Assembly: GCA_021828045.1 (NCBI GenBank)
Contig: JAKATI010000008.1
Span: 1-37,103 of the forward strand
Direction: 5' to 3'
Length of the DNA stretch: 37,103 nt
DNA from: Pseudomonadota bacterium
Lineage (GTDB): Bacteria; Pseudomonadota; Gammaproteobacteria; JAKAQQ01
A program made the translations under genes and the position numbers. Positions 22,984 through 33,643 of the stretch are shown in pieces (positions within the stretch are counted from its first letter, which is position 1; each line of letters opens with the position of its first letter). Under the pieces are notes generated by a model that had not been told where the DNA came from, did not search any database, and saw nothing but the letters and a program-made list of their open reading frames with translations.

Positions 22984-23994
22984 GTGAAAATCCATCTGAA
23001 ACAGATATATCCAATTCTGGCGGGTCTTGCCTTTGTGTTTGCCGGATCGGCTCTTGGCGCACCCGCCTCACCGGTGGTGCACGAGAATGCGGCCGGCGGG
23101 GTCCGGTTCCTGGAGGCGGGTCAACCGCCGGTCGTCATTTACCCGCTGGTCGGAAACGCAGAGCGGGCACGTGCGGCACAGAGAAAGAGCGGCACCACGG
23201 GTGGCAACCTGTACTACCACGGTGGAACCGGGGGCATCGGGGTCGAAACCGCGCCACACATTTACATTGTCTTTTGGGGATCCCAGTGGATCAACAATGA
23301 TCCCAGCGGAGAAGCGGCCATTCTCGAGTCTTTGCTGGGCAGCGTCGGTGGCAGTTCCTGGCTCAATACCGTCACCCAGTATTGCGAGGGTGTGGCCAGC
23401 GGCACCGTGTTCTGCAATGGCGCCGGCACGCCGGCAGGCAACCAGCCGAACCTGCTCATTTCCTACTGGTATGACAGCGCCAAGGCCGCACCGAGACATC
23501 CCAAACAATCCCAGATCGCGGCCGAGGCGGTCCGGGCGGCCCAGTATTTCGGGAATACAGCTTCCGGGAGCAACGTCACCACCCAGTATGTGATTGCAAC
23601 CGCGACGGGGAACAATTCGAGCGGGTTCGGCAGACAATACTGCGCCTACCATAGCTCGACCAGTTCGTCCTACGGTAACGTGGCCTACACCAACCTGCCC
23701 TACATCACCGATGCAGGCTCGAGCTGCGGGGCCAACTTCAACGGCTTGGGCCCGGATGCCGGCATCAGCATCGTGGAGGGTCACGAGGCTGCCGAAACCA
23801 TCACGGACCAGTTCCCGAGCGGAGGCTGGCTCGATTCGAATGGTTCCGAGATCGGTGACAAGTGTGCCTGGATCTCCTCGGGCCAGGGGGCGTCCGCCGA
23901 CGTGACGTTCCCGGACGGTACCACCTTCCCGATGCAATCCCTCTGGAGCAATGCCTTCAACAGCGGCGGGGGTGGCTGCGTGATGTCTTACTGA
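22984..23994 (+). CDS. Secreted EXORDIUM/PHI-1-like protein with HExxE motif
   Basis: A 336-residue exported protein. Residues 1-25 are a signal peptide (GSALGAP cleavage). The core has IYIVFWGSQW (93-102), NLPYITDAGSSCGANF (237-252) and ISIVEGHEAAETITDQFPSG (261-280), then a GDKCAW and a final GGGGCVMSY. The GHExxE-...-GD-C block resembles the conserved block of plant EXORDIUM/PHI-1 proteins and related bacterial exported proteins; His267, Glu268 and Glu271 could bind metal, as in metallopeptidases, but no enzymatic activity is known to me for this family. Six cysteines (134, 144, 220, 248, 293, 332) allow three disulfides. GTG start with GGAGGT just upstream; an ATG two bases earlier is immediately followed by TGA. 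Confidence 0.75.
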   Translation: MKIHLKQIYPILAGLAFVFAGSALGAPASPVVHENAAGGVRFLEAGQPPVVIYPLVGNAERARAAQRKSGTTGGNLYYHGGTGGIGVETAPHIYIVFWGSQWINNDPSGEAAILESLLGSVGGSSWLNTVTQYCEGVASGTVFCNGAGTPAGNQPNLLISYWYDSAKAAPRHPKQSQIAAEAVRAAQYFGNTASGSNVTTQYVIATATGNNSSGFGRQYCAYHSSTSSSYGNVAYTNLPYITDAGSSCGANFNGLGPDAGISIVEGHEAAETITDQFPSGGWLDSNGSEIGDKCAWISSGQGASADVTFPDGTTFPMQSLWSNAFNSGGGGCVMSY

Positions 23995-24011: not shown

Positions 24012-24049
24012 AATCGCCGGCAGTGTCGGGGACATTGCCGGCGATTTTT
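24012..24049 (+). terminator. Strong intrinsic terminator after the EXORDIUM-like gene
   Basis: Arms at 24012-24027 and 24031-24046 pair over 16 bases (one G-T) with a GGG loop, followed by TTTTT. It lies 18 bases after the stop codon and isolates this gene from the nuclease-helicase gene. Confidence 0.92.
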
Positions 24050-24146: not shown

Positions 24147-26198
24147 ATGAGGAACCTGACGACCCACGTTCAGGAGGCAACCCCGTTTGCGAGGCGCTGG
24201 AGCTACGGCGCTCCAATCCGTGATTTTATGGCTGAAGATCCTTCGGCCATCCTGGGCCAACTGACAGCGGGATCTGCATTTGCGGACGAACTCTCCCAAA
24301 AAAAAGCGTGGGAGGAGGAAGCCCGTCTGCTGGTAGATGTGTTGGGTCCATACGGTTCGGCCCCAGGCGCCCTCTACCTCGAATACGACATTCCCCGACT
24401 GGGCAGGCGGATCGATGCGGTTTTGATCCTGAAACAGGTCGTGTTCGTATTGGAGTTCAAGGTGGGGGAAACCCGGTTTTCAAGTGAGGCGGAGGAGCAG
24501 GTCTTGGATTACGCGCTCGATCTCAAAAACTTTCATGAGCCGAGCCACACAGTTCCGATCGTCCCGATCCTCGTCGCCACACACAGCGATGCCATCCCCA
24601 ATGGAATCGAAGTCCCGAAATCCGGGGATCTCCTGGCGAATCCACTTCGGTGCGGTGCACACGGTTTGCGGAAAGCGCTCCACCAGGCCCTTGTCTTTTT
24701 TGCTGGCACCCCGATCGACTGCCAAGCCTGGGAGCGGGGCCGGTACCACCCGACCCCCACAATTGTCGAAGCAGCCCGCGCACTCTATGCCGGCCATGCA
24801 GTCGGAGAGATTTCACGGAACGATGCCGGGGCCTTCAATCTGGCCGTCACCTCGGATCGTCTGTGTCAAATCATTGAACAGAGCCAAAAAAAGGGAAACA
24901 AGACGATTTGTTTCGTGACGGGTGTGCCAGGCGCCGGGAAAACCCTGGTCGGGCTGGACATCGCCAGCCGGAATAACCGGGTCCACGATCAGCGCTACAG
25001 TATTTTTCTTTCCGGCAATGGCCCGCTGGTCAGCGTCCTGCACGAGGCGTTGGCCCGCGACCGAAGGGAACGGGCGCAAAGACAGCACGAGACCTTGCGT
25101 CTCGGGGAAGCACGCAGTGCTGTAAAGCAATTCATTCAAAATGTTCATCATTTCAGAGACGATTGCTTGTCTCAGCCAGCCGCCCCGATCGAGCATGTGG
25201 CCCTGTTTGATGAAGCGCAGCGGGCATGGGATCTGCCCCAAACCGCCCGGTTCATGCAGCAGAAGAAACACCGGACCGGATTTAACCAGTCAGAGCCGGA
25301 ATACCTCATTTCCTGTCTCGACCGACACCGGGACTGGGCCGTGATTGTCTGCCTGGTCGGCAGCGGACAGGAAATCAATACGGGAGAAGGGGGGATCCAT
25401 GAATGGCTGGCCGCGATCTTGCATGCCTTTCCGCACTGGCTGGTCTGTCTTTCTCCCCAGCTCCGGAAAGCCGAGTATCACGTCGCCCAAGACCTTGCAG
25501 CGTTGGGAACTCGTGCCCAGATCGACTGGGACGAGAGCCTCCATCTTTCTGCATCCGTTCGGTCTTTTCGGTCTGAACGGGTCTCGGACTTTGTCAACCG
25601 GCTGCTGGCACTAGAAACGGAGCAAGCCCGAAACACGCTGTCCCAGGTGCTACCCCGATTCCCGATTTACGTCACGCGGCATCTGACCCTTGCCAAGAAC
25701 TGGCTCCGGCAACAGGCCCGGGGTACGGAACGTTATGGCCTGATGGTGTCCTCCCAGGCGCAACGTCTCAAGCCGTATGCCATCGATGTCCGGGTCAAGG
25801 TAGATCCGGTTCGTTGGTTTCTTGAAGGCAGAAAAGATGTCCGATCCTCTTACTACCTGGAGGACGCAGCCACCGAGTTCCAGGTGCAGGGTCTGGAACT
25901 CGACTGGACCTGCGTGGTCTGGGACGGCGACCTCCGGACAGATGGGACCGACTGGCAGTATTTCAGCTTCAAGGGGAAACGATGGGAACGGATCCATAAA
26001 GAAGATCGGAAACGCTACCTCCTGAACGCCTATCGGGTCCTTTTGACCCGGGCACGGCAGGGGATGGTGATCGTGGTGCCGGAAGGAGATCGGTGCGATC
26101 CCACCCGGGATCCGCAATTTTACGATCCGGCCTACAGGTTTTTAACCCAGGTCGGGATCCCGGAACTTGAAGCGGAAGCCCAGCTGGCAACCGGCTAG
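24147..26198 (+). CDS. PD-(D/E)XK-type nuclease fused to DUF2075 SF1 helicase
   Basis: A 683-residue protein. N-terminal part (about 50-200): an acidic residue near 57, then LEYDIPRLGRRIDAVLI with Asp90, VFVLEFK with Glu103 and Lys105, and Gln118; this is the D...ExK...Q layout of PD-(D/E)XK nucleases. From about 235 a DUF2075 (superfamily-1-like) ATPase follows: Walker A GVPGAGKT (259-266), Walker B LFDEAQ (353-358), LVGSGQEINTGEGG (403-416), motif V-like EFQVQGLELDW (577-587) and motif VI-like AYRVLLTRARQG (628-639). All key residues look intact. The architecture resembles in outline single-protein nuclease-helicase defences such as Nhi; that function is inference. No methylase or partner gene is adjacent, so it would have to act alone. 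Its codon use looks less GC-biased than the housekeeping genes. Confidence 0.85.
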   Translation: MRNLTTHVQEATPFARRWSYGAPIRDFMAEDPSAILGQLTAGSAFADELSQKKAWEEEARLLVDVLGPYGSAPGALYLEYDIPRLGRRIDAVLILKQVVFVLEFKVGETRFSSEAEEQVLDYALDLKNFHEPSHTVPIVPILVATHSDAIPNGIEVPKSGDLLANPLRCGAHGLRKALHQALVFFAGTPIDCQAWERGRYHPTPTIVEAARALYAGHAVGEISRNDAGAFNLAVTSDRLCQIIEQSQKKGNKTICFVTGVPGAGKTLVGLDIASRNNRVHDQRYSIFLSGNGPLVSVLHEALARDRRERAQRQHETLRLGEARSAVKQFIQNVHHFRDDCLSQPAAPIEHVALFDEAQRAWDLPQTARFMQQKKHRTGFNQSEPEYLISCLDRHRDWAVIVCLVGSGQEINTGEGGIHEWLAAILHAFPHWLVCLSPQLRKAEYHVAQDLAALGTRAQIDWDESLHLSASVRSFRSERVSDFVNRLLALETEQARNTLSQVLPRFPIYVTRHLTLAKNWLRQQARGTERYGLMVSSQAQRLKPYAIDVRVKVDPVRWFLEGRKDVRSSYYLEDAATEFQVQGLELDWTCVVWDGDLRTDGTDWQYFSFKGKRWERIHKEDRKRYLLNAYRVLLTRARQGMVIVVPEGDRCDPTRDPQFYDPAYRFLTQVGIPELEAEAQLATG

Positions 26199-26598
26199 GA
26201 GATTTCCAGGAGATCTCAGACCGGAGGAATTCTTGCAAGGTCTGCGCGTGAACCCGTCCTTCAGCTCGGAGTCCCCGGGCTCCATTAGCTTGATGACCGG
26301 CCCAGACTCCAGAGGATATCGTCGTGATCCATGTCTGGGACCCAAGCCTACGAGGCTCAGCAGGGAGAAGCCTCCCCCTCCCTGCCAGAAGGAAGCCGAT
26401 TCCTAGATATTAAAGGCTGACTCTCAAGGCAATCCAACGTTCGGTTCTCGAGTTGCATTCACTGTGGGGCGGGAGTAATGTACCGGTGGTTACTCCATCA
26501 AGGTCAGCGTGGGCGAACCTCCACGTGGCCGATTCCCGCAGGGGTCGGCAGGGTGGATGTTTTTTTGGTTCCACACCAGCGGATTTCAGAGGTATCAC
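26199..26598. other. 400-base gene-free region
   Basis: Between the nuclease-helicase and the Asp-box propeller. I see no credible gene. It contains a hairpin with arms GCAGGGAG (26360-26367) and CTCCCTGC (26378-26385) without a T stretch, and a weak promoter-like pair TTGCAT (26453-26458), 17 bases, TAATGT (26476-26481) about 120 bases upstream of the propeller gene. It is unusually long for this compact window and could be the scar of a lost gene. Confidence 0.5.
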
Positions 26599-29500
26599 AT
26601 GAAACGATTCTCGTGGGTGACTTATTGGAGCCTGGTGATCTTTGGTTGCCTGGCGTTCACCGTGGGTGCGGCCGCCCGGGTCAATCCGGACCTCTATGCG
26701 GCTCTCCGCTGGCGCAACGTCGGTCCCTTCCACGGCGGCCGGGTTGCGTCGGTCACCGGCGTCATCGGCCAGCCCAACGTCTACTACGCAGCCACTCCCG
26801 AGGGGGGGCTTTGGAAAACCACGAGTGCCGGGGTCACCTGGTTTCCCATCTTCGACCAGATCAAAAAAGTGGACAGCCTCGGCGCTGTCCAGGTGGCACC
26901 CTCCGATCCCAATATCGTCTATGCCGGAACCGGCGACCCCACCATCATCAACGCACGGCTCGGCAGCCTGGGGGATGGGGTATGGAAATCCACCAATGCC
27001 GGCAAAACCTGGCACCACGTGGGACTCCGGAACACCGTGATGATCGACAACATCCTGGTCGATCCCAAAAATCCCAACGTGGTCATCGTCTCGGCACTCG
27101 GCAATCGCACCCACCACGGCGGAGGCATCTGGCGCAGCACCAATGGCGGGAGGACCTGGACCCGGGTCCTCGACCCGGCCGGTTACAAAGGCACACGCGA
27201 GGTCGTGGCCGATGCCGGCAATTTCCGGATCCAGCTGGCCACGACCGAAGGAACGGGGGGCCCATTTTTCAAGCTCATGCATGGCCCGAAGGCCAAGCCC
27301 AAACCACCACTCCTGTTCAAATCCACGAACGGCGGTCTGACCTGGACTCCCGTCAAAATTCCCGCTTTCCCGGGTCGGGTCAGCGTGGCAGTCGCCTTGC
27401 AGGGCCGGCGCATCTACATCGTCGGGAACAACATCCAGCATGGATCCGGGCTCTTCCGTTCCGACAATGGAGGGGCCACGTGGCGGCACATGGACGTCAA
27501 GGACAAGCGGATCAGCAATGGTCAGGGATCCTACAGCTGCGGCGTCTTCGTGGATCCCGAGAATCCGAACATTCTCTATACGGTGAGTACCGCCCTGTAC
27601 CGTTCCACCGATGGGGGCGTCACTTTCCACGCCTTCAAAGGCGCGCCGGGTGGAGAGGATTACCACGACCTCTGGATCGACCCGCACGATGGCCGGCGCA
27701 TGGTGGTCGCCTCCGACCAGGGGGCCAGCGTCACACTCAATAACGGCAAGACCTGGAGCCTCTGGTACACCGAGACCTTCTCACAGATCTACCATGTGGC
27801 CACCACCCATCAATATCACTTCTGGATCCTCGGCGCACAGCAGGACACCGGTGCCGTCATGATCCGCAACCAGAGCAACTGGGGACAGGTGGATTTCATC
27901 AACTGGAAACCCCTCCCCTCTTCCGAATTCGGCTACATCACGCCCGACCCCCTGCACCCGCACATCCTCTATGGCCTGGGCTACGGCCCGGGCGGGGGGG
28001 GCGGCAGCCTGATCAAGATCAACATGGTCACCGGACAGTGGGAGAACATCGCGCCCAACTTCGGGGTGAAATCCAAAAATTACTGGGGCAACCGCAGCCA
28101 GCCGAAAAAGTTCGACACCGCCTTTGATCCCCACGCTCTCTACATCGCCTACCAGTGCCTCCTGGTCTCGCAGGATGGCGGACATTCCTGGCGATCATTC
28201 AGCCCCAACCTCACCACGCTCAAGGGAAAGCCTCCCGTGCCCTGTGGCCAGCCGCTTCCTCCTGCCAAGAAAGTGAAGGGGAAAAAGAAGCCTCCCCACA
28301 ATCCCTTTGCCCCACCTGGCCCGGTCATCAATGATTTCTCCATCTCCAAGGTCCATCCGGGCATTGTCTGGACCGTGAGCAGCAACAACCAGATCTACAA
28401 CACCCGGGATGGAGGCAAACACTGGCACAACGTCACGAACATCACCGGCCTGGCGCCCCATACCCACCTGCACACGATCGTAGCCGGTGACACGGTGGGG
28501 ACCGCTTATGTCACAGGCTATCTCACCGTCCGGCACCATCCCAAGCCCGTCGGACCCGCCCATACGATTGCCGGGGTTCCGCTCATCTGGCGCACCACCA
28601 ATGGCGGCCGGAGCTGGGTCCCCATCGTGCATGGCCTGCCCCGCAACCAACGCACCGGCAGCTGGGTGAATGTGTTACGGGCCGATCCCAAGCAGCCCGG
28701 CCTGCTTTTTGCCGGAACCGAGACGACCGTTTACGTCAGCTTCGACAACGGCAATGACTGGCAGTCGTTGCGGCAAAACCTGCCCAGCACCTCCATCACG
28801 GATCTCGTGGTCCATACGGCCTACCACATGAACGATCTGGTCATCAGCACCTTCGGTCGCGGCTTCTGGGTATTGGATGACATCACGCCCCTGCGCCAGA
28901 TTGCCGCCCATCCCCGGACAATCGCCTCCTCCTCCGTCTATTTCTTCAAACCCGAGGAAGCCATTCGTTCCCGCAGCAACAGCAACTGGGATCAGCCCTT
29001 CTCGGTTGAGGTCCCACAGGCCCCGAACCCGCCCTACGGCGTGATCGTGGATTATGCCCTCCGCCATCCACCCAAAGGTCCGATCCGGCTCCAGGTCTTT
29101 GATGCCCGGGGGCACCTGGTCCGCACCTACTCCAGCACGCTTCCGCCCCCCATCAAGGGTCAGGACTATCCCCGCTATTGGCTGGCCTCGCCCCAGTCAC
29201 GGGCCTTGACCACCCATATCGGCCTGAACCGCTTCAACTGGGACCTCCGCTACGCACCACCGCCGGCCTTTCACCACGACCTCGAAAACCAGATGAACAC
29301 CGTGGCCGGTGCCACAACGCCGGGTCCGCATGGACCCCAGGTGATTCCGGGGGTCTATACGCTCAAACTCACGGTGAACGGGAAGGTGTATACCCGACAC
29401 GTCACCGTGATGAACGATCCCCGCGTCGGCCAGAGTGCGGATCTGATGGCAAAGCTGCGGGTCCAGAACCGGCTCACCATGCACGCCTATCACGGCATGG

Positions 29501-29967
29501 AACAGACCTACCAGGGCCACCAGGAAGTCCACGCCGTGAAAGTCCAGGTGGCCTCGCTCATGCGCGAGCACCTGCCGGCCCCGGTTGCCTTGAAGGCCAA
29601 GAAACTCATGGCCCGCCTGAGCCAGATCGGCGGCAAGAAAGTGGCGGGAGGCTTCCTGTTTCGTTTCACCCATCCGAAACCGAAACCCCACGCACTGCGC
29701 TCCTTCCTCATCCTCAACAATCACTTCAATACCCTGGTCAGCATGATGCAGGTGGGACTCGATATGGCGCCGACCGCAGCACAGATCGCCACCCTGAAGA
29801 ATGACTGCCGCCAGGACAACCGTACGGTGGCTGCCTGGAAGGCGCTGGAGGCGAAACAGTTGAGGTCCTTGAACGCCCTCCTGGGGAAAAACCACCTGAA
29901 GAAACTCACCTTCGTGCCCATCCGGCTCGCCCGTCTGTCCTGCGGTGGAGTGACGTACAGGCACTGA
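26599..29967 (+). CDS. Large exported Asp-box (VPS10/sortilin-like, BNR) beta-propeller protein
   Basis: A 1122-residue protein. A signal peptide or anchor covers residues 1-25 (VTYWSLVIFGCLAFTVGAAA). About eleven Asp-box turns with the S/T-x-D/N-x-G-x-T-W text follow, e.g. STNAGKTW (131), STNGGRTW (180), STNGGLTW (242), SDNGGATW (288), STDGGVTF (336), SQDGGHSW (524), TRDGGKHW (602) and TTNGGRSW (666). After the propeller comes GRGFWVLDDITPLRQI and a beta-sandwich with GVYTLKLTVNGKVYTRHVTV. The start NVGPFHGGRV and the whole order match exported 'glycosyl hydrolase BNR-repeat / VPS10' proteins of unknown function; I see no catalytic residues. The ATG at 26599 has AGAGG six bases upstream; an upstream 30-residue extension is unlikely. 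Single gene. Confidence 0.88.
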   Translation: MKRFSWVTYWSLVIFGCLAFTVGAAARVNPDLYAALRWRNVGPFHGGRVASVTGVIGQPNVYYAATPEGGLWKTTSAGVTWFPIFDQIKKVDSLGAVQVAPSDPNIVYAGTGDPTIINARLGSLGDGVWKSTNAGKTWHHVGLRNTVMIDNILVDPKNPNVVIVSALGNRTHHGGGIWRSTNGGRTWTRVLDPAGYKGTREVVADAGNFRIQLATTEGTGGPFFKLMHGPKAKPKPPLLFKSTNGGLTWTPVKIPAFPGRVSVAVALQGRRIYIVGNNIQHGSGLFRSDNGGATWRHMDVKDKRISNGQGSYSCGVFVDPENPNILYTVSTALYRSTDGGVTFHAFKGAPGGEDYHDLWIDPHDGRRMVVASDQGASVTLNNGKTWSLWYTETFSQIYHVATTHQYHFWILGAQQDTGAVMIRNQSNWGQVDFINWKPLPSSEFGYITPDPLHPHILYGLGYGPGGGGGSLIKINMVTGQWENIAPNFGVKSKNYWGNRSQPKKFDTAFDPHALYIAYQCLLVSQDGGHSWRSFSPNLTTLKGKPPVPCGQPLPPAKKVKGKKKPPHNPFAPPGPVINDFSISKVHPGIVWTVSSNNQIYNTRDGGKHWHNVTNITGLAPHTHLHTIVAGDTVGTAYVTGYLTVRHHPKPVGPAHTIAGVPLIWRTTNGGRSWVPIVHGLPRNQRTGSWVNVLRADPKQPGLLFAGTETTVYVSFDNGNDWQSLRQNLPSTSITDLVVHTAYHMNDLVISTFGRGFWVLDDITPLRQIAAHPRTIASSSVYFFKPEEAIRSRSNSNWDQPFSVEVPQAPNPPYGVIVDYALRHPPKGPIRLQVFDARGHLVRTYSSTLPPPIKGQDYPRYWLASPQSRALTTHIGLNRFNWDLRYAPPPAFHHDLENQMNTVAGATTPGPHGPQVIPGVYTLKLTVNGKVYTRHVTVMNDPRVGQSADLMAKLRVQNRLTMHAYHGMEQTYQGHQEVHAVKVQVASLMREHLPAPVALKAKKLMARLSQIGGKKVAGGFLFRFTHPKPKPHALRSFLILNNHFNTLVSMMQVGLDMAPTAAQIATLKNDCRQDNRTVAAWKALEAKQLRSLNALLGKNHLKKLTFVPIRLARLSCGGVTYRH

Positions 29968-30114: not shown

Positions 30115-30627
30115 TCACTCGTGGCTCGTCGTCACGACTGCAACCAACGCGTGCAGAATCGCATCCGGAGGCGGTGGACAACCGCTGACCACCTGATCCA
30201 CGGGAAGCACACGGGCAACCGGTCCGCAGCTCGCGTAACCCAGCCCGAAAAGTCCTCCGGTGCAGGCGCAGTTACCAACCGCAATGACCCATTTCGGGTC
30301 CGGCATCGCGTCATACGCCTGTTTCAGGGCGGTCTCCATATGCCGGGAAACCGGACCCGTCACCAGCAACACATCGGCATGGCGAGGACTGGCCACGAAC
30401 CGGATTCCGTACCCTTCGAGATTGTAGTAGGGGTTGGTGACCGCATGGATCTCGAGCTCACAACCGTTGCAGGACCCGGCATCGACGTGGCGAACTGCCA
30501 GTGCCCGGCCAAAGCGCCTGTGCAGCTGGGCCTGAAGCTTTGATACGGGTCCCGAGTCGTCCTGATGCGAAATCCGGGATTCGGAAATTATTCCGGTTCG
30601 GAGGATCTGCTTCAGGGTACGGAGCAT
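30115..30627 (-). CDS. HyfI/NuoB-like Fe-S small subunit of an Ehr-type complex
   Basis: A 170-residue protein of the complex I 20 kDa / group 4 hydrogenase small-subunit family, shorter than E. coli HyfI. All four cysteines that bind the proximal 4Fe-4S cluster are present: Cys53 and Cys56 in GSCNGCELEI, Cys120 in GNCACTGG and Cys150 in SGCPPPPDAI. The CxxC spacing is of hydrogenase type rather than the Cys-Cys pair of NuoB. It is the last gene in the operon, 14 bases after the HyfG-like gene. The ATG at 30625-30627 was chosen because homology begins soon after; the longer frame is antisense of the previous gene. Confidence 0.9.
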   Translation of the reverse strand: MLRTLKQILRTGIISESRISHQDDSGPVSKLQAQLHRRFGRALAVRHVDAGSCNGCELEIHAVTNPYYNLEGYGIRFVASPRHADVLLVTGPVSRHMETALKQAYDAMPDPKWVIAVGNCACTGGLFGLGYASCGPVARVLPVDQVVSGCPPPPDAILHALVAVVTTSHE

Positions 30628-30641
30628 GACGGGTTCTGCCT

Positions 30642-32192
30642 CTAAAGGTCCTGACCGCTGTAGGACAGGTTGAAGGACTTGTTGATCAACGGGAAATCGG
30701 GCACGATATTGCCGATCATTGCATGTTCGAGCACGGGCCAGTTTTGCCAGGAAGGGTCGTGGGGATGGCAACGATGGATGATGCCCCCGGCGGTTTCCAG
30801 ACCCACCAGCACGGGTCCGCGCCAACCCTCGACCAGTCCGAGCCCGAATCCGTCCGGCACCGTGTCCGGCAGCGATCCGCGATGCGATGACGCGGGGAGC
30901 TGCTCGAGCAGGATCCGGCTGAGCCGGAGCGATTCGAACAGTTCCTGGAACCGTACGGAGACGCGGGCCCCAACATCTCCTTCGGAACTGTATCCCGGAC
31001 GTACGTCAAGCGTGTCATAAGGTGCATGGCCGGGATCCCGCCGCGCATCCCTCCTCTGCCCGCTTGCCCGGCCCGCAAGCCCCACCAGTCCCAGCTGACG
31101 GGCAAGCCCAGGACTGACACGACCGGTTCCCGAGAACCGGTCTTGAAGACCCGCGTGATCCTCATAGATCCCCGAGAGGGTGTTCAGTTCGGATTCCAGT
31201 CGCGGGATCGCTTCGAGCAACATCCACCGCTTGGATTCATCGAGATCCGAGACGACGCCCCCAGGGACGATGGCATCCATCAGGTAGCGCGCACCGAAAG
31301 CCCGTTGATTGGCCCGGATCAGGTCTTCTTTGAGACGCGAAAATTGCGCCAGGGCGACTCCGAATCCGGCGTCATTGCCGAGTGCACCGAGATCCCCGAG
31401 ATGATTGGCGATCCGCTCCCGTTCGAGATAGAGCGCACGCAGCCACAGGGCACGCGCGGGGGGATGGATCCCGCAGATCGCCTCCAGCGCCATGCAGTAG
31501 GCCCAGGAAAATGCCACTGCAGAATCACCGGAGACCCTCGCCGCAAGTCTCTCGGCACCGAATGCCGGAAGCAGGGTAAATCGCTTCTCGATCCCCTTAT
31601 GGGTATAGCCGAGCCGTTCCTCGAGACGGAGAACTTTTTCACCCACGACCGAAAAGCGGAAGTGCCCGGGTTCGATCGTGCCGGCATGGACCGGGCCCAC
31701 GGCGATTTCGTGTACGCCGTCACCCGTGACTCGAACGAAGGGATACGATCGGTCGGTGGATGGCCCGGTGGAGGACACGCTATCGAAGTCGTATCGAAGG
31801 GGGAAGCAGTCCTCGGACCACGCGTCATGGCGGATCCACGGCCTTCGATCGGCAGCTTCCGCACGGACCCCGAGCAGATCGTAGGCGGCACGTTCCATGC
31901 GGCCGGCCGCAGGAAAAATACCGGCAATCGAAGGATAACCCGGTGCTTGAGCCGGAAGGGCCACTTCGACAATCACGATTCCCGCCTCATCCTGCAAAGC
32001 GACCCGGAGCAAGAATCCACCGCCAGACTTCCGGTGATCGGAAACCCACAGCGCCTGCAGCACCCCTCCTTCCTCCTCAACTGAACGGCACAGCATCTGC
32101 AGCGGGTCCGGGGAGGTCCGGACAAGACGGACCGGAACCGCTCCCGTGCGCTCCTCGACAACCTGACCAAAGCTTGTGTAGTCCATGGCCAT
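30642..32192 (-). CDS. HyfG-like large subunit lacking NiFe ligands (Ehr-type)
   Basis: A 516-residue fusion: a NuoC (30 kDa)-like domain (1-135, with YPSIAGIFPAAGRMERAAYDLLG) and a NuoD/hydrogenase-large-subunit-like domain. In NiFe hydrogenases, the metal is held by RxCGxC near the start and DPCxxC near the end of the second domain. Here the first site reads RVSGDS (219-224) and the second DPSWQN (489-494), so all four cysteines are gone. It therefore cannot be a hydrogenase. It fits the energy-converting hydrogenase-related (Ehr) complexes, whose substrate is unknown. The ATG at 32190-32192 overlaps the stop of the HyfF-like gene as TGATG. Confidence 0.92.
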   Translation of the reverse strand: MAMDYTSFGQVVEERTGAVPVRLVRTSPDPLQMLCRSVEEEGGVLQALWVSDHRKSGGGFLLRVALQDEAGIVIVEVALPAQAPGYPSIAGIFPAAGRMERAAYDLLGVRAEAADRRPWIRHDAWSEDCFPLRYDFDSVSSTGPSTDRSYPFVRVTGDGVHEIAVGPVHAGTIEPGHFRFSVVGEKVLRLEERLGYTHKGIEKRFTLLPAFGAERLAARVSGDSAVAFSWAYCMALEAICGIHPPARALWLRALYLERERIANHLGDLGALGNDAGFGVALAQFSRLKEDLIRANQRAFGARYLMDAIVPGGVVSDLDESKRWMLLEAIPRLESELNTLSGIYEDHAGLQDRFSGTGRVSPGLARQLGLVGLAGRASGQRRDARRDPGHAPYDTLDVRPGYSSEGDVGARVSVRFQELFESLRLSRILLEQLPASSHRGSLPDTVPDGFGLGLVEGWRGPVLVGLETAGGIIHRCHPHDPSWQNWPVLEHAMIGNIVPDFPLINKSFNLSYSGQDL

Positions 32193-33643
32193 CACCCGAT
32201 GAGCTTCGCTGCCGCGCGGTACCACTCTGAAAGATCATGGGGAATATAAATCCCGAGCAGAAAAACCATTGCGAGCTGCAGAAATACCGGAAACATCAGT
32301 GGAGTCCGGGACAACGGTTTCAGGTTGGTTTCGCCCCATACCATCTCCTGGACACGCAAGAAAATCGCTCCGAACGCGACCGAGAGCGTACCCATAAGTA
32401 TCGGGGTTGCCCAGGGATACTCTCTCATCGCAGTGAGAAAGATCAAGAACTCGCTGGCGAATACGCCAAACGGCGGCATGCCGATGATGGCGAGCGTGCC
32501 GATCATGAGGCTCCACCCCACCGCGGGATTTGCATTCGCCAGTCCGCGGATCCGATCCATGGCCTGGGTGCCGGCTTGCTGCGCAGCATGACCCACCGTG
32601 AAAAAAAGGGAAGACTTGGTGAGCGAGTGCACGGTCATCTGCAGCAGGGCGGCAAAGTTCGCAATGGCCCCTCCCATGCCAAAGGCAAACGTGGCGATCC
32701 CCATGTGTTCGACCGAGGAGTAGGCAAACAACCGCTTGATGTCTTTCTGCCGCCAGAGCAGAAATGCGGCCACGGTGACGGAGATCAGCCCGAAACCCAT
32801 CATCAGCTTCGGAGCCAGACCAGCGTATGCAGACCCATCGACCAGAACCTTGCAGCGAACCACCGCATAGAGCGCGACATTGAGAAGCAGCCCGGACAAT
32901 ACGGCCGAGACCGGCGCCGGACCTTCGGCGTGTGCATCCGGAAGCCAATTGTGCAAGGGGACCAGTCCCACCTTGGTACCATAGCCGACCAGCAGGAACA
33001 CAAATGCGAGCGAAAGCACGGTCGGCTCCAGCCGACTTTTGACCTGGTTCAGGTGGGTCCAGAGCAAGGCACTGATGCCGACGTTCCCAAGGATTTTTTC
33101 AGCAGCCAGGTAGAGCAGGATGGTCCCGAACAGGGCCTGCGCAATGCCGACCCCACTGAGGATGAAGTATTTCCAGGCCGCCTCGATACTCGCAGGGGTC
33201 CGGTAAAGCGACACCAACAATACGGTTGTCAGTGTGGCTCCCTCCATCGCCACCCACAGAATGCCCATATTGTTCGTTGTGAGTGCGAGCAGCATGGTAA
33301 ACATGAACAGCTGGAACATTCCATAGTAAAGCCGGAGTTGTCGGGAACCGAGGCGTCCATGTTCTTGCTCGACCCGCATGTAGGAACGCGAGAAAAATGA
33401 TGTCGTGAGCCCGATGAATGAAGTCAGGACGACCAGAAAGACATTCAACGAATCGAGGAAGAACTCCTGTCCGGCAGTGATCCAGGTTCCATTCACGATC
33501 ACATGCGCGGCCAGCCAGAGCCCCCCCATGAATGTTCCGAGGCTGATCAGGATGTTTGCAACGGACGCCCAAAGCCGGGTTCCGGCCAGAGCCAAAAACA
33601 AGCTGCCCAACAAGGGAAATCCGAGAAGGAGAAGCAGTGCCAT
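32192..33643 (-). CDS. HyfF-like proton-pumping antiporter-type membrane subunit
   Basis: A 483-residue membrane protein with about 14 spans of the NuoL/M/N-Mrp antiporter family. It contains GTKVGLVPLHNWLPDAHAEGPAPVSAVLSG, with the Lys of the proton channel and the HxW/DAH broken-helix region, and DIKRLFAYSSVEHMG. These subunits move protons or sodium ions in complex I-like enzymes. Start ATG one base after the HyfE-like stop; operon member. Confidence 0.92.
   Translation of the reverse strand: MALLLLLGFPLLGSLFLALAGTRLWASVANILISLGTFMGGLWLAAHVIVNGTWITAGQEFFLDSLNVFLVVLTSFIGLTTSFFSRSYMRVEQEHGRLGSRQLRLYYGMFQLFMFTMLLALTTNNMGILWVAMEGATLTTVLLVSLYRTPASIEAAWKYFILSGVGIAQALFGTILLYLAAEKILGNVGISALLWTHLNQVKSRLEPTVLSLAFVFLLVGYGTKVGLVPLHNWLPDAHAEGPAPVSAVLSGLLLNVALYAVVRCKVLVDGSAYAGLAPKLMMGFGLISVTVAAFLLWRQKDIKRLFAYSSVEHMGIATFAFGMGGAIANFAALLQMTVHSLTKSSLFFTVGHAAQQAGTQAMDRIRGLANANPAVGWSLMIGTLAIIGMPPFGVFASEFLIFLTAMREYPWATPILMGTLSVAFGAIFLRVQEMVWGETNLKPLSRTPLMFPVFLQLAMVFLLGIYIPHDLSEWYRAAAKLIG

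What the first reader, a model, noticed from the sequence alone, without database searches (positions are those of the whole stretch)
24147..26198. Stand-alone PD-(D/E)XK nuclease - DUF2075 helicase, candidate single-gene defence system
One protein holds an ExK nuclease core (Asp90, Glu103, Lys105, Gln118) and a complete SF1-type ATPase. It sits alone between a strong terminator and a 400-base gene-free stretch among exported proteins, with no partner. Nuclease-helicase single-gene immunity (Nhi-type) is known, but DUF2075 proteins with this N-terminal domain are largely uncharacterised.
Basis: partly seen in the sequence, partly recalled or inferred. Interest (0 to 1): 0.7.

Follow-up and report, generated by a model that had tools for sequence, protein, structure and literature searches.

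The report
Single-gene nuclease–helicase, catalogued defence candidate
This bacterial gene makes one protein that joins a DNA-cutting enzyme to an ATP-driven motor; it belongs to a family already listed, but not yet tested, as a probable one-gene defence against viruses.

Summary
The 683-aa ORF at 24147-26198 is a fusion of an N-terminal PD-(D/E)XK nuclease with the RecB/HsdR-type QxxxY signature (D90, E103xK105, Q118xxxY122) and a C-terminal SF1 ATPase of the Schlafen group-3 helicase family (Pfam PF09848, formerly DUF2075). Both active sites are intact in 44 of 44 relatives aligned, down to 27-28% identity. The protein matches PADLOC's unpublished candidate PDC-S41 over its whole length (905 bits). 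It is not Nhi: that profile matches only the P-loop. The family is patchy (full length in about 3% of sampled Pseudomonadota genomes), moves horizontally and decays into relics. It has no constant partner gene, and it sits next to Mrr- or NERD-type nuclease genes in 7 of 32 loci (0.14 expected, families chosen post hoc). The window locus itself is not a defence island. Most likely it is a stand-alone, ATP-driven, restriction-like nuclease acting on foreign DNA. Immunity, substrate and self/non-self discrimination are all untested. The remaining interest lies in the domain pairing and the recurrent Mrr/NERD neighbours.

The parts
24147..26198 (+). PDC-S41 family nuclease-helicase gene, 683 aa
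   Evidence: ORF; PADLOC PDLC05014, 905 bits, profile positions 3-654 of 657; dN/dS 0.13
24291..24581 (+). N-terminal PD-(D/E)XK nuclease core, residues 49-145
   Evidence: AlphaFold2 secondary structure alpha-beta-beta-beta-alpha-beta; top ten Foldseek hits mostly PD-(D/E)XK nucleases, none significant alone; no Pfam family covers it
24414..24512 (+). Catalytic residues D90 (24414), E103 (24453), K105 (24459), Q118 (24498), Y122 (24510): D...ExK...QxxxY
   Evidence: 44 of 44 homologues identical
24900..26081 (+). SF1 ATPase/helicase, Schlafen group-3 type (PF09848), residues 252-645
   Evidence: Pfam E=5.3e-79; Foldseek best hits SLFN11 and SLFN14, then UPF1
24921..24944 (+). Walker A GVPGAGKT (residues 259-266)
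   Evidence: P261, G264 and K265 in 44 of 44, T266 in 43
25206..25220 (+). Walker B FDEAQ (residues 354-358)
   Evidence: DEAQ in 44 of 44
24012..24046 (+). Intrinsic terminator of the upstream exported-protein gene, isolating the nuclease-helicase gene
   Evidence: 16-pair stem, T tail
26199..26598 (.). Gene-free stretch downstream, up to the likely ATG of the VPS10/BNR-repeat exported protein

Best explanation
A stand-alone, accessory, ATP-driven DNA nuclease used against invading DNA. Proposed mechanism: the SF1 motor (Schlafen group-3 type) loads on DNA with a foreign feature (an end, a single-stranded or replication intermediate, or a modification), translocates or unwinds using ATP, and thereby presents DNA to the fused RecB/HsdR-like PD-(D/E)XK active site, which nicks or degrades it. 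Shown by sequence: both intact active sites in one chain, no constant partner, patchy horizontal spread, recurrent proximity to restriction-type nuclease genes. Inferred: DNA as substrate, coupling of motor and nuclease, how self is spared, and phage immunity itself.
For: Full-length match to the catalogued defence candidate PDC-S41. Invariant nuclease and ATPase residues in 44 of 44 homologues. PD-(D/E)XK topology in two models, with the weak structure hits dominated by PD-(D/E)XK nucleases, McrBC first. QxxxY is the signature of RecB-like nucleases and of motor-coupled HsdR (PMC4454674). Full length in 11 of 399 Pseudomonadota genomes and 3 of 9 of its own family. Gene tree conflicts with kinship: grouping the copy of family member G007 with the window's copy is rejected, p-AU 0.0012; Planctomycetota as one clade rejected, p 7e-7. 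Frameshifted or decayed copies in L055, L029, L030. Mrr_cat or NERD nuclease genes within 5 kb in 7 of 32 loci against 0.14 expected from the same genomes. No recurrent partner. Relatives on IMG/VR viral contigs and an integrase about 4 kb away in G344.
Against: No experiment. The window locus has no defence or mobility genes nearby. A broad PADLOC scan of neighbour genes gave only a slight excess over random regions (against 49), and Mrr/NERD were picked after seeing the Pfam list, so the P values are nominal. The family is rare on plasmids (4 of 72,556 records) and phages (1 of 50,697).
Confidence: 0.65

Rival explanations
1. An accessory DNA-repair or recombination nuclease-helicase (RecB/AddA-like end processing) that is not immune in purpose.
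For: RecB-type QxxxY signature and SF1 motor; weak structural hits to the archaeal repair nuclease NucS/EndoMS; stable synteny with the nearest species L002.
Against: Too patchy for a core repair enzyme; horizontal spread and decay; restriction-type nuclease neighbours.
Confidence: 0.15
2. A Schlafen-like abortive system: the ATPase senses phage nucleic acid and the nuclease cuts RNA or tRNA to stop the cell.
For: Closest solved structures of the whole chain are human SLFN11 and SLFN14; Pfam names the domain SLFN-g3 helicase.
Against: The RNase part of Schlafens is absent; the nuclease is a RecB/HsdR-like PD-(D/E)XK, typically DNA-specific.
Confidence: 0.1
3. A weapon of mobile elements (superinfection exclusion or inter-element competition) rather than a host system.
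For: Relatives on IMG/VR contigs, one unannotated phage record, four plasmid records, integrase near one copy.
Against: Very rare in phage and plasmid collections; the window copy lies among chromosomal exported-protein and respiratory genes.
Confidence: 0.08

Closest known systems
PADLOC PDC-S41 (candidate single-gene system, PADLOC-DB 2.0.0)
   Same: Same family: 905 bits, residues 17-675 against positions 3-654 of 657
   Different: Nothing in architecture; PDC-S41 is a computational candidate, and no held paper mentions it by name
Nhi (nuclease-helicase immunity, SERP2475)
   Same: Single protein with nuclease and helicase; works-like analogy
   Different: PADLOC Nhi profile matches only the P-loop (E=1.4e-4, about 37 residues); not a member
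HsdR of type I restriction enzymes
   Same: PD-(D/E)XK with QxxxY fused to a nucleic-acid motor in one chain (PMC4454674)
   Different: HsdR motor is SF2 and needs HsdM/HsdS; here SF1, with no methylase or specificity subunit next door
Schlafen group III (SLFN11, SLFN14)
   Same: Homologous C-terminal SF1 helicase domain (PF09848; best Foldseek hits)
   Different: N-terminal Schlafen RNase core replaced by a PD-(D/E)XK nuclease
Gabija, Hachiman, DdmDE
   Same: Nuclease plus helicase logic; Gabija and DdmDE chains appear among the fold hits
   Different: Two-gene systems with other nucleases or other motor types (own knowledge, PMC12904381)

Membership tests
PDC-S41 | Full-length match to PADLOC profile PDLC05014 | tested here: met
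   4.4e-273, 905.5 bits, 3-654 of 657
PDC-S41 | Occurs as a single gene without fixed partner | tested here: met
   no neighbour family shared by most of 32 loci; largest cluster 6 loci spread over the flanks
PDC-S41 | Gives anti-phage immunity | not testable with these tools
   needs plating assays
PD-(D/E)XK nuclease superfamily | alpha-beta-beta-beta-alpha-beta core with D...(D/E)xK on the second and third strands | tested here: met
   residues invariant in 44 of 44
PD-(D/E)XK nuclease superfamily | Significant structural match to a solved member | tested here: inconclusive
   best E=0.026 (McrBC complex), several further top hits are members, none significant alone
RecB/HsdR-like subgroup | QxxxY motif after the ExK | tested here: met
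   Q118xxxY122, 44 of 44; motif description PMC4454674
Schlafen group 3 helicase (PF09848, ex-DUF2075) | Profile match over the gathering score, SF1 motifs intact | tested here: met
   266.5 bits against cut-off 24; motifs
Nhi | Full-length match to the Nhi profile | tested here: not met
   only profile positions 198-227 of 470, at the P-loop
Schlafen proteins proper | N-terminal Schlafen RNase core | tested here: not met
   no such Pfam match; N-terminus has PD-(D/E)XK topology
Type I restriction HsdR | SF2 motor with HsdM and HsdS encoded nearby | tested here: not met
   SF1/PF09848 motor; no restriction genes among the ten neighbouring proteins

The most novel reading that the evidence does not exclude
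A distinct mode of one-protein DNA immunity in which a Schlafen-type motor is the sensor of foreign DNA and drives a fused RecB/HsdR-like nuclease, with adjacent Mrr/NERD nucleases as interchangeable helpers in some lineages; this would link the vertebrate Schlafen helicase module to a bacterial DNA-targeting system.
Probability: 0.2. Interest if true: 0.65.

Novelty: new member of a known kind. Interest (0 to 1): 0.36.

Why it matters
PDC-S41 is an untested candidate, found here in several bacterial phyla, in a much-used defence catalogue. Its motor is homologous to the helicase part of human Schlafen proteins, which act in antiviral defence and DNA damage, so testing one copy would say whether that module worked as a DNA-directed immune sensor in bacteria. 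The invariant residues named here give exact mutants for such a test.

Tried and rejected
Nhi membership: profile matches only the P-loop. Solved homologue by sequence: none for the single sequence, and nothing beyond P-loop noise for the profile. Clean empty site: in congener G001 the VPS10 gene is kept but its surroundings are rearranged, so no precise insertion junction could be read. Broad defence-island enrichment by PADLOC hit counts: only a slight excess over random regions, because many PADLOC models also match housekeeping kinases and helicases. E. coli context: no DNA-level relatives. Truncated hits in G151 and G378 as free-standing nuclease domains: weak or not reproducible by tblastn, treated as relics or noise. 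Literature: no held paper names PDC-S41, and the five that mention DUF2075 do so once each.

Full report
OBSERVATION. The ORF 24147-26198 encodes 683 aa. It is isolated upstream by a strong terminator (24012-24046, 16-pair stem) and downstream by 400 gene-free bases. Its neighbours look like exported proteins: a PQQ/BamB-like repeat protein, a 336-aa protein without Pfam match, and a VPS10/BNR-repeat protein. Ten proteins around it match nothing in PADLOC. The nearest homologue, L002 (83% identity), has the same neighbours on both sides; dN/dS between the two is 0.13.

NUCLEASE DOMAIN. No Pfam model covers residues 1-250 of the window protein. AlphaFold2 on 25 homologues gives mean pLDDT 82 for the whole chain and for the N-terminal domain alone. 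The core order is helix 49-69, strand 74-82, strand 86-95, strand 98-105, helix 113-129, strand 138-144, with D90 on the second strand, E103 and K105 on the third, and Q118/Y122 on the following helix. This is the PD-(D/E)XK topology. Foldseek on the domain gives only weak hits, but the best ones are mainly members of that superfamily: E. coli McrBC complex, VC1899, Cdn1, P. abyssi NucS/EndoMS, MspJI, BspD6I small subunit, Card1 (superfamily membership of these from own knowledge). Q118xxxY122 is the QxxxY motif described for RecB-like nucleases and for HsdR (PMC4454674). E79, R84, D90, E103, K105, Q118, Y122 and H130 are identical in 44 of 44 homologues, some only 27-28% identical overall.

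MOTOR DOMAIN. Residues 252-645 match PF09848, now named Schlafen group 3 DNA/RNA helicase (formerly DUF2075), E=5e-79. The whole-chain Foldseek search puts SLFN11 and SLFN14 first, then UPF1-type SF1 helicases (TM-scores are low, about 0.3, so the match is one of fold and order, not of overall arrangement). Walker A, Walker B and the QGLELD and LLTRA motifs are conserved in all copies aligned.

FAMILY. PADLOC-DB 2.0.0 holds this family as PDC-S41; the match covers nearly the full profile at 905 bits. PDC models come from a guilt-by-embedding preprint (Payne et al. 2024, as cited in PMC12988326) and most lack experimental validation (PMC12988326).

DISTRIBUTION. In 399 Pseudomonadota genomes 21 gave any match and 11 (this one included) a full-length one. 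In the window's own family 3 of 9 genomes carry it, with one of two congeners positive (these genomes are incomplete, so absence is provisional). The same-family copy in G007 is only 55% identical to the window's, while Rhodanobacteraceae and other Lysobacterales copies are 62-68% identical; holding the window, L002 and G007 together as a clade is rejected (p-AU 0.0012). G007's copy lies on a 4-kb contig and on a long branch, so misbinning or artefact is possible. Planctomycetota copies are polyphyletic (p 7e-7). Broken copies exist (L055 and L029 frameshifted; L030 decayed over several frames), though some may be assembly errors. Plasmid and phage carriage is rare; nine IMG/VR contigs carry relatives.

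NEIGHBOURS. Among 32 loci no gene family recurs as a partner. Pfam scans showed repeated Mrr_cat and NERD domains; among 143 genes of random regions of the same genomes each could occur at most once, since families with two or more members would have been listed. Mapping those families through the same 32 genomes gives 26 Mrr_cat and 31 NERD matches in about 119 Mb; within 5 kb of the gene there are 5 and 5, in 7 loci in all, against 0.14 expected. In L027, L081 and L087 an Mrr-type gene ends 12-102 bases upstream on the same strand; L082 has Mrr, Mrr, NERD and then this gene in tandem. The choice of these two families was post hoc and sister loci are not independent; counting five independent loci still gives P about 4e-7 nominally. 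A broad PADLOC count showed only a slight excess over random regions.

MECHANISM. Two intact enzymatic centres under strong constraint in one chain, and a RecB/HsdR-type nuclease tied to an SF1 motor, point to ATP-dependent processing of nucleic acid, most likely DNA. Patchy spread, horizontal transfer, decay and restriction-type neighbours point to immunity rather than core repair. What triggers it and how host DNA is spared are unknown; no methylase partner was found beside it in the window, which favours recognition of ends, replication intermediates or modifications over sequence-specific restriction. This last step is inference.

VERDICT. Real, well-defined, and a member of a catalogued but uncharacterised candidate family. 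What is added here is the RecB-type QxxxY assignment of the nuclease, invariance of both active sites across the family, evidence of horizontal spread, and the Mrr/NERD neighbourhood.

Noticed in passing
L082:6035-10789 (and L027:8876-11980, L081:2135-5191, L087:7340-11167): Tandem Mrr_cat, Mrr_cat, NERD and PDC-S41 genes on one strand in L082; single Mrr_cat genes directly upstream of PDC-S41 in three other loci. A possible extended form of the system.
   Followed up: partly
window 26509-29967: The VPS10/BNR-repeat exported protein belongs to a large paralogous set: 10 matches in this 1.7-Mb genome and 4-10 in each relative, unusual for so small a genome.
   Followed up: no
window 22984-23994: Exported 336-aa protein with no Pfam match, present only in this genome and congener G002 among nine family members; it lies beside the nuclease-helicase gene in both.
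   Followed up: partly
L030:10001-11640, L029:9947-11978, L055:8566-10577: Frameshifted or decayed copies of the gene, including one in a Candidatus Didemnitutus mandela genome.
   Followed up: partly
window 30115-32225: Minus-strand genes matching complex-I 20-, 30- and 49-kDa subunit families, apparently part of a larger complex-I- or hydrogenase-like cluster reaching the window end.
   Followed up: no
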